Assembly: GCA_900498245.1 (NCBI GenBank)
Contig: LS998015.1
Location: 1,550,744 to 1,614,743 of the forward strand
Direction of reading: 5' to 3'
DNA: 64,000 bases
Origin: Candidatus Zixiibacteriota bacterium
GTDB taxonomy: Bacteria; Zixibacteria; MSB-5A5; GN15; PGXB01
This document shows, piece after piece, positions 1,199 through 2,381 of this stretch (its first letter is position 1; the number at the start of each line of letters is the position of its first letter). The notes beneath the pieces were generated by a model. The model was not told the origin of the DNA. It made no database searches and was given only the letters and a program-made list of their open reading frames with translations. A program made the translations under genes and the position numbers.

Positions 1199-1666
1199 TC
1201 AGGATTCGGCCGCTTCGGAATTATATAACTCAACTCCATCCTGATTTTGCACTTTGACCGCAACCGGAATCCCCTTGCGGACACTTTGAGTCACTACGCA
1301 GAAATCCTCGAACAGGCGGATACACTGGCCCATCCGATTGGGCGCTTCGGTGCCGATATCCATTCTGATGGCGACTTCGCTATTGCCGATCCGGAGCCGG
1401 CCCTTATCGGTGCGATGAAGGGCGGTGGTCACTTCCGTTTTGACATTCCCGACCTCGATCCGGGCTTTTTGAAGGCAGAAGAGGAGCGAAGCGGTCAGGC
1501 AATTGCCAATGGCGGCAGAGAGCACTCGCGAGGCATTCGGTCCTTTGTCGGCACCCAAAGGCGACGGCTCATCCATCAGGAGTTCCGCCATATGCGGCTC
1601 GAATTTAATATTGAATTCGAAATCCTTAATCCGCTCCATCGTGACCTTCAGCAGTTTTTCTTCCAT
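1199..1666 (-). CDS. OsmC/Ohr family thiol peroxidase-like protein
   Basis: A 155-residue OsmC-fold protein. The two redox cysteines expected in the family are present: Cys56 in GNCLTAS and Cys123 in FEDFCVVTQSV. Extra cysteines are at 64 and 115. Family members reduce organic hydroperoxides with dihydrolipoyl or thiol donors in the cytoplasm, though some OsmC-like proteins have no shown peroxidase activity. The start has a clear GGAG site. It lies 70 bases downstream of the disulfide oxidoreductase gene on the same strand, so the two may form a small thiol-redox operon, and the oxidoreductase could be its reductant (inference). Confidence 0.85.
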   Translation of the reverse strand: MEEKLLKVTMERIKDFEFNIKFEPHMAELLMDEPSPLGADKGPNASRVLSAAIGNCLTASLLFCLQKARIEVGNVKTEVTTALHRTDKGRLRIGNSEVAIRMDIGTEAPNRMGQCIRLFEDFCVVTQSVRKGIPVAVKVQNQDGVELYNSEAAES

Positions 1667-1736: not shown

Positions 1737-2381
1737 TTATTTTGCCAGAGCCTTTAAGGCTTCCTCGACAAATTTCGGCTCGGGAACGGCGCCCTCGATA
1801 TGAATCTTCTCGTTAACGACCGTCTTCGGGACACCGTAAACCTGATATTTATTCGCCAGATGAGGAAACTCGGTGGCCTCGACCATATCCGAGGTGATAT
1901 TATCGTTTTCCATGGCGAAAGCATGAGCCAGCCGCACCGCGGCCGGACAGTACGGTCAGGTCGGTGTTACAAAAACCTGGAAGTGAAGCGATTCCTTGAC
2001 CGTTTTCAGCTTCTCGCGGGTCTTCTCCGACAGTCCCGAATCGCGTTTGGAAACCATAATGATATCATCGAGGAGCGATGCAAACTCGTACCCGGCCGGG
2101 ATACCATAATAACGGATACCATAGTCTTTTTCTCCCATGACAATGGTCGCCGGGATTTTGTCGATTTTATATTGTTCAGCCACCGTTTTATCGGTGATAA
2201 AATTATAAACCAGAAGCGAAATCTTATCCGAAAGGGCGGTCAGTTCTTCCAGAAGCATTCTGGTTTCACGGCAGTACTGACATTCCAGCTCCTGGGTGAA
2301 ATTGATGATCTTTACGGGATGGACCAGTTCTTTCAGCCGATCCTGAATCGCCTTGCGGTCTTTGTCGCTTATAAGGGCCAT
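1737..2381 (-). CDS. two-domain protein disulfide oxidoreductase (glutaredoxin-like), probable selenoprotein with UGA at residue 142
   Basis: Read through one in-frame TGA (1956-1958), this is a 214-residue protein with two thioredoxin folds, the layout of archaeal-type PDO proteins. Fold 1 has CQYC at residues 34-37. Fold 2 has U-PYC at residues 142-145 and continues PAAVRLAHAFA, as in known PDOs, where this site is CPYC. The TGA therefore sits exactly on the nucleophilic cysteine codon, and the frame stays open and conserved to a normal TAA end. A hairpin with a GGU loop follows the TGA (separate entry). The start has a strong GGAGG site. PDOs catalyse thiol-disulfide exchange and accept electrons from thioredoxin reductase. 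The alternative is a point-mutated pseudogene or a sequencing error. No selA, selB or selD lies in the window. Confidence 0.8.
1928..1946 (-). promoter_or_regulatory. SECIS-like hairpin downstream of the UGA codon
   Basis: Reading the minus strand from the TGA (1958-1956), nine bases are followed by an 8-bp stem, CCGGCCGC (1946-1939) with GCGGCTGG (1935-1928), containing one G-U wobble. The apical loop is GGU (1938-1936), 17 bases after the UGA. Bacterial SECIS elements lie just 3' of the UGA and expose G and U in the apical loop for SelB. Position, size and loop all fit. The stem is GC-rich, so a chance hairpin is possible. Confidence 0.6.

What the first reader, a model, noticed from the sequence alone, without database searches (positions are those of the whole stretch)
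1928..2381. Probable selenocysteine-containing protein disulfide oxidoreductase (UPYC active site)
Seen: an in-frame TGA at 1956-1958 splits one 214-residue two-thioredoxin-fold protein, exactly at the first Cys of its second CxxC, giving U-PYC. The frame and conserved residues continue on both sides. A hairpin with a GGU loop begins nine bases downstream. Known: Sec often replaces the nucleophilic Cys in thioredoxin-like folds. Inferred: the site is recoded. I do not recall a described selenoprotein of this two-domain PDO type.
Basis: partly seen in the sequence, partly recalled or inferred. Interest (0 to 1): 0.85.

Follow-up and report, generated by a model that had tools for sequence, protein, structure and literature searches.

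The report
Known selenocysteine disulfide oxidoreductase, new host
The gene is a two-domain redox protein that reads an in-frame stop codon (UGA) as selenocysteine in its second active site; this is almost certainly real, but this type of selenoprotein has been described since 2006, so it is an ordinary new example in a candidate-phylum bacterium.

Summary
On the minus strand, 2381-1737 encodes one 214-residue protein interrupted only by TGA at 1958-1956, exactly at the first Cys position of the second CxxC (U142-P-Y-C). The interpretation also holds. The single-contig genome has selA, selB, selD (itself with an in-frame TGA) and tRNA-Sec(UCA). Close relatives keep TGA at this codon; others have TGT or TGC. 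Codons after the TGA are under the same strong purifying selection as those before it. A hairpin starting 9 nt after the UGA meets all four published bacterial SECIS criteria. In 16 of 17 UGA-bearing loci the hairpin loop starts exactly 17 nt after the UGA; hairpins in Cys homologues are much weaker. The novelty remark does not hold. The protein scores 302.8 bits against NCBIfam TIGR02187 'PDO_seleno_TRX' (cut-off 185). [quoted passage not shown] This is a new member of a known kind, in Zixibacteria. One mildly new point is a conserved adjacent OsmC-type gene, which suggests a PDO/OsmC redox pair.

The parts
1737..2381 (-). Complete gene of the two-thioredoxin-fold protein disulfide oxidoreductase, 214 aa with Sec142; ATG at 2381-2379, TAA at 1739-1737
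   Evidence: one TGA only; TIGR02187 302.8 bits against cut-off 185; one search matches PDO 1a8l at E 5e-59 over residues 1-212; model pLDDT 91, two thioredoxin-like alpha/beta units
1956..1958 (-). In-frame TGA codon 142, read as selenocysteine: first residue of the second active site U142-P-Y-C145
   Evidence: TGA conserved in same-genus and same-family relatives, TGT in one same-family genome, TGT or TGC in most distant homologues
1928..1946 (-). SECIS-type hairpin CCGGCCGC-GGU-GCGGCUGG: 8 bp, 3-nt loop, loop starts 17 nt after the UGA
   Evidence: -13.9 kcal/mol; 6 of 1000 synonymous-codon shuffles reach it; published bSECIS limits in PMC13188914
2271..2282 (-). First active site C34-Q-Y-C37, encoded by ordinary Cys codons
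2388..2393 (-). Shine-Dalgarno-like AGGAGG, 6 nt before the ATG
   Evidence: Sequence read directly
1199..1666 (-). Downstream OsmC-type gene (155 aa, Cys form); conserved neighbour in the family and possible redox partner
   Evidence: PF02566 at 45.8 bits; NF041052 below its cut-off (40.7 against 95); adjacent to PDO in all five full-length loci of the family

Best explanation
This is a selenocysteine-containing protein disulfide oxidoreductase of the TIGR02187 family: two thioredoxin folds, the N-terminal one with CQYC and the C-terminal one with UPYC. The UGA at codon 142 is decoded by SelB and tRNA-Sec(UCA), guided by a hairpin just downstream in the coding sequence. The selenol of Sec142 most likely acts as the attacking nucleophile in thiol-disulfide exchange, with Cys145 as resolving residue, and the N-terminal CxxC probably relays electrons from a reductase. 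Decoding is strongly supported by comparative evidence; the catalytic role follows from the family and is inferred; the substrate, perhaps the neighbouring OsmC-type protein, is a guess.
For: Machinery in the same single-contig genome: selA 486 bits, selB 325 bits directly downstream of selA, tRNA-Sec 71.9 bits with anticodon TCA, selD with its own in-frame TGA in CAGUASK. Of 21 phylum genomes with a PDO over the TIGR02187 cut-off, 13 carry TGA at codon 142 and 8 carry TGT or TGC; all 13 TGA genomes have selA and tRNA-Sec over the cut-offs. Two Chloroflexi-labelled loci also carry TGA there (L094, L114). Purifying selection is about equal on both sides of the TGA. SECIS: the loop starts 17 nt after the UGA in 16 of 17 UGA loci, in two pairing registers; median hairpin -9.9 kcal/mol against -3.6 in 82 Cys homologues (Mann-Whitney p 2e-8). 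Family: TIGR02187 302.8 bits.
Against: Taken alone, the hairpin is no more stable than dinucleotide-shuffled sequence (z -0.32 and -1.0); its support is positional and comparative. One UGA homologue (L043) lacks the standard hairpin. Rfam gives no match here. The loci are related and a few are duplicates, so the p-value overstates independence. No proteomic or biochemical evidence was available.
Confidence: 0.96

Rival explanations
1. The TGA is a real stop or a pseudogene mutation: the organism makes a truncated 141-residue one-domain protein, or the gene is decaying.
For: TGA is a stop in table 11, and the first domain with CQYC could stand alone.
Against: TGA is conserved across genera, families and two phyla at the one catalytic codon, with no other stop in most copies; downstream pN/pS is 0.068; full Sec machinery is present.
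Confidence: 0.02
2. Sequencing error: the true codon is TGC or TGT.
For: Many homologues carry TGC or TGT, including the same-family genome G008.
Against: Separate assemblies from the same genus and family carry TGA at the same codon.
Confidence: 0.01
3. UGA is read as another amino acid (genome-wide recoding or suppression), not Sec.
For: None found; in principle UGA can be Trp or Gly in some candidate phyla (own knowledge).
Against: The UGA sits exactly at a redox Cys, a dedicated tRNA-Sec(UCA), selA and selB are present, and the position alternates only with Cys among sampled homologues.
Confidence: 0.01

Closest known systems
[quoted passage not shown] Symbiobacterium thermophilum)
   Same: Same NCBIfam model, far above its cut-off, same UxxC motif, bacterial Sec decoding (PMC1794560, PMC13188914)
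   Different: Host phylum (Zixibacteria). The position of U in the published sequences (first or second motif) was not checked directly, because those sequences could not be fetched
Cys-form protein disulfide oxidoreductases with solved structures (1a8l, 1j08, 2ywm, 2ayt, 2hls)
   Same: Full-length homology, two thioredoxin folds with two CxxC sites
   Different: Those are Cys proteins; here the first Cys of the second site is Sec
AhpF N-terminal domain (1zyn, 1hyu)
   Same: Tandem thioredoxin folds; remote homology, E about 1e-10
   Different: AhpF is fused to a flavin reductase; this protein stands alone

Membership tests
TIGR02187 PDO_seleno_TRX | Whole-protein score above the curated cut-off (185 bits), full-length | tested here: met
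   302.8 bits, profile positions 2-208 of 209
TIGR02187 PDO_seleno_TRX | UxxC redox motif (literature: UxxC, one Sec) | tested here: met
   U142-P-Y-C145, one TGA; motif in PMC13188914
TIGR02187 PDO_seleno_TRX | Tandem thioredoxin folds | tested here: met
   AlphaFold2 model pLDDT 91 with two alpha/beta thioredoxin-like units; phmmer to 1a8l E 5e-59
TIGR02187 PDO_seleno_TRX | Disulfide oxidoreductase activity | not testable with these tools
   Needs purified protein
Bacterial selenoprotein | selA, selB, selD and tRNA-Sec in the genome | tested here: met
Bacterial selenoprotein | bSECIS: 3-9 nt loop, 4-16 bp stem, G in the first two loop positions, loop 16-37 nt from UGA, MFE at or below -7.5 | tested here: met
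   3 nt, 8 bp, GGU, 17 nt, -13.9 kcal/mol
Bacterial selenoprotein | Cys homologues aligned at the UGA | tested here: met
   82 Cys and 17 TGA loci
Bacterial selenoprotein | Selenium shown in the protein | not testable with these tools
   Needs mass spectrometry or 75Se labelling

The most novel reading that the evidence does not exclude
In this Zixibacteria family the Sec-PDO and the adjacent OsmC-type protein form a dedicated two-protein peroxide-reducing pair, the selenol PDO reducing the OsmC thiol peroxidase much as the AhpF N-terminal domain reduces AhpC.
Probability: 0.25. Interest if true: 0.4.

Novelty: new member of a known kind. Interest (0 to 1): 0.17.

Why it matters
It adds Zixibacteria to the hosts of a known selenoprotein family and gives a clear TGA/Cys alternation within one bacterial family and phylum, useful for studying Sec/Cys exchange. 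It also corrects a gene that an annotation with table 11 would split into two ORFs. It does not reveal a new kind of system.

Tried and rejected
An Rfam scan of the region at permissive threshold gave nothing. Single-sequence folding z-scores were uninformative. A plasmid search found only distant PDO and AhpF relatives, all under 60% identity. The published Carboxydothermus sequence was not fetched, so its U position was not compared. The TGA/Cys proportions in the 80-locus scan are biased towards Cys, because one search pattern required TCP at the active site. A real stop or pseudogene, a sequencing error and general UGA recoding were considered and rejected, as argued under the rivals. A paper search for selenoproteins in Zixibacteria gave one paper, which is not about this protein.

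Full report
Observation. The minus strand from 2381 to 1737 reads as one 214-codon frame broken only by TGA at 1958-1956 (codon 142), followed by TAA. The TGA stands where the second CxxC of a two-thioredoxin-domain protein would have its first Cys, giving U-P-Y-C; the first site is an ordinary C-Q-Y-C. The ATG is preceded by AGGAGG.

Genome. The window lies in a single-contig 3.5 Mb genome. Its closest named relative in the collections (93% protein identity, same-genus genome G001, contig CALMKK010000142.1) is labelled candidate division Zixibacteria. The genome has selA (486 bits) followed directly by selB (325 bits), tRNA-Sec with anticodon TCA (71.9 bits), and a selD with an in-frame TGA of its own, in CAGUASK. 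Only one PDO of this type is present.

Conservation. In the same GTDB family, G001, G006 and G013 keep TGA at codon 142 and G008 has TGT. In 132 phylum genomes, 21 have a match over the TIGR02187 cut-off; 13 of these carry TGA at this codon, 8 carry TGT or TGC. All 13 TGA genomes have selA and tRNA-Sec. Two Cys-form genomes (G008, G107) have selA but no tRNA-Sec hit at the threshold used; these are draft assemblies, and other Cys-form genomes have a tRNA-Sec and selA. Among the 80 nearest loci in named genomes most are Cys forms; TGA is seen in Zixibacteria loci and in two Chloroflexi-labelled ones (L094, L114). That scan is biased towards Cys, because one of its two patterns demanded Cys at the site. 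Substitutions after the TGA are constrained about as strongly as before it (pN/pS 0.068 and 0.053 against the same-genus relative), so the downstream part is translated as protein and, given one frame and no start of its own conserved, most simply as part of the same protein.

SECIS. The hairpin CCGGCCGC-GGU-GCGGCUGG meets the published bSECIS limits (PMC13188914): 3-nt loop, 8-bp stem, G in the first two loop positions, 17-nt spacing, -13.9 kcal/mol. In 16 of 17 TGA loci (14 of 15 after dropping two duplicate contigs) a hairpin has its loop 17 nt after the UGA, either as GGU with an 8-bp or 6-bp stem or as a 4-5 nt loop with a 6-bp stem. The sequences differ but pairing is kept (for example CCGGCCGC/GCGGCUGG in the window and CCAUCCGC/GCGGAUGG in L094). 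The same search in 82 Cys loci gives weaker, scattered hairpins (median -3.6 against -9.9). When synonymous codons are shuffled, 6 of 1000 versions of the window gene reach the observed hairpin; most other TGA genes give 10 to 55 of 1000, and three (L040, L043, L114) are unremarkable. Dinucleotide shuffling alone shows nothing unusual, so the comparative evidence carries the case.

Function. Full-length similarity to solved PDO structures (1a8l, E 5e-59), the model with two thioredoxin-like units and the motifs indicate a thiol-disulfide oxidoreductase with Sec as the probable nucleophile. Two TGA-form relatives appear to lack one Cys of the first site (L040 CxxY; L043 GxxC, a copy that also has a TAA early in the frame), which hints that the second, selenium site is the essential one. 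An OsmC-type gene follows directly in all five full-length loci of the family and was not found by tblastn beside PDO in the other loci held, so it may be a partner; this is inference.

Known or new. TIGR02187 is named PDO_seleno_TRX in NCBIfam. [quoted passage not shown] It was reported in Carboxydothermus and Symbiobacterium in 2006 (PMC1794560) and in Asgard archaea in 2024 (PMC11227280). The finding is a new member of a known kind.

Noticed in passing
L047 (G005:C1 about 319150) and L021: A same-family genome has a short PDO frame with an in-frame internal deletion (about residues 17-174 missing) that removes both active sites, still directly before the OsmC-type gene. The same assembly shows only fragments of selA although it has tRNA-Sec, so it may be an assembly artefact.
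   Followed up: partly
window 1199-1666 (minus): Conserved OsmC-type neighbour of the Sec-PDO; matches the OsmC_like_Se model below its cut-off (40.7 against 95 bits) but is a Cys form.
   Followed up: partly
L022 (G000:C1 438747-439673): selD of this genome is itself a selenoprotein gene, with TGA in the motif CAGUASK.
   Followed up: yes
L030 and L115 (G107): A Cys-form PDO with an in-frame TAG at the position of Tyr87; probably a pseudogene or a sequence error.
   Followed up: no
L056 (DYGG01000033.1): Contig labelled Ignavibacterium sp. has the same length as a contig of G006, a genome of the window's own GTDB family, so the deposited name is probably wrong.
   Followed up: no
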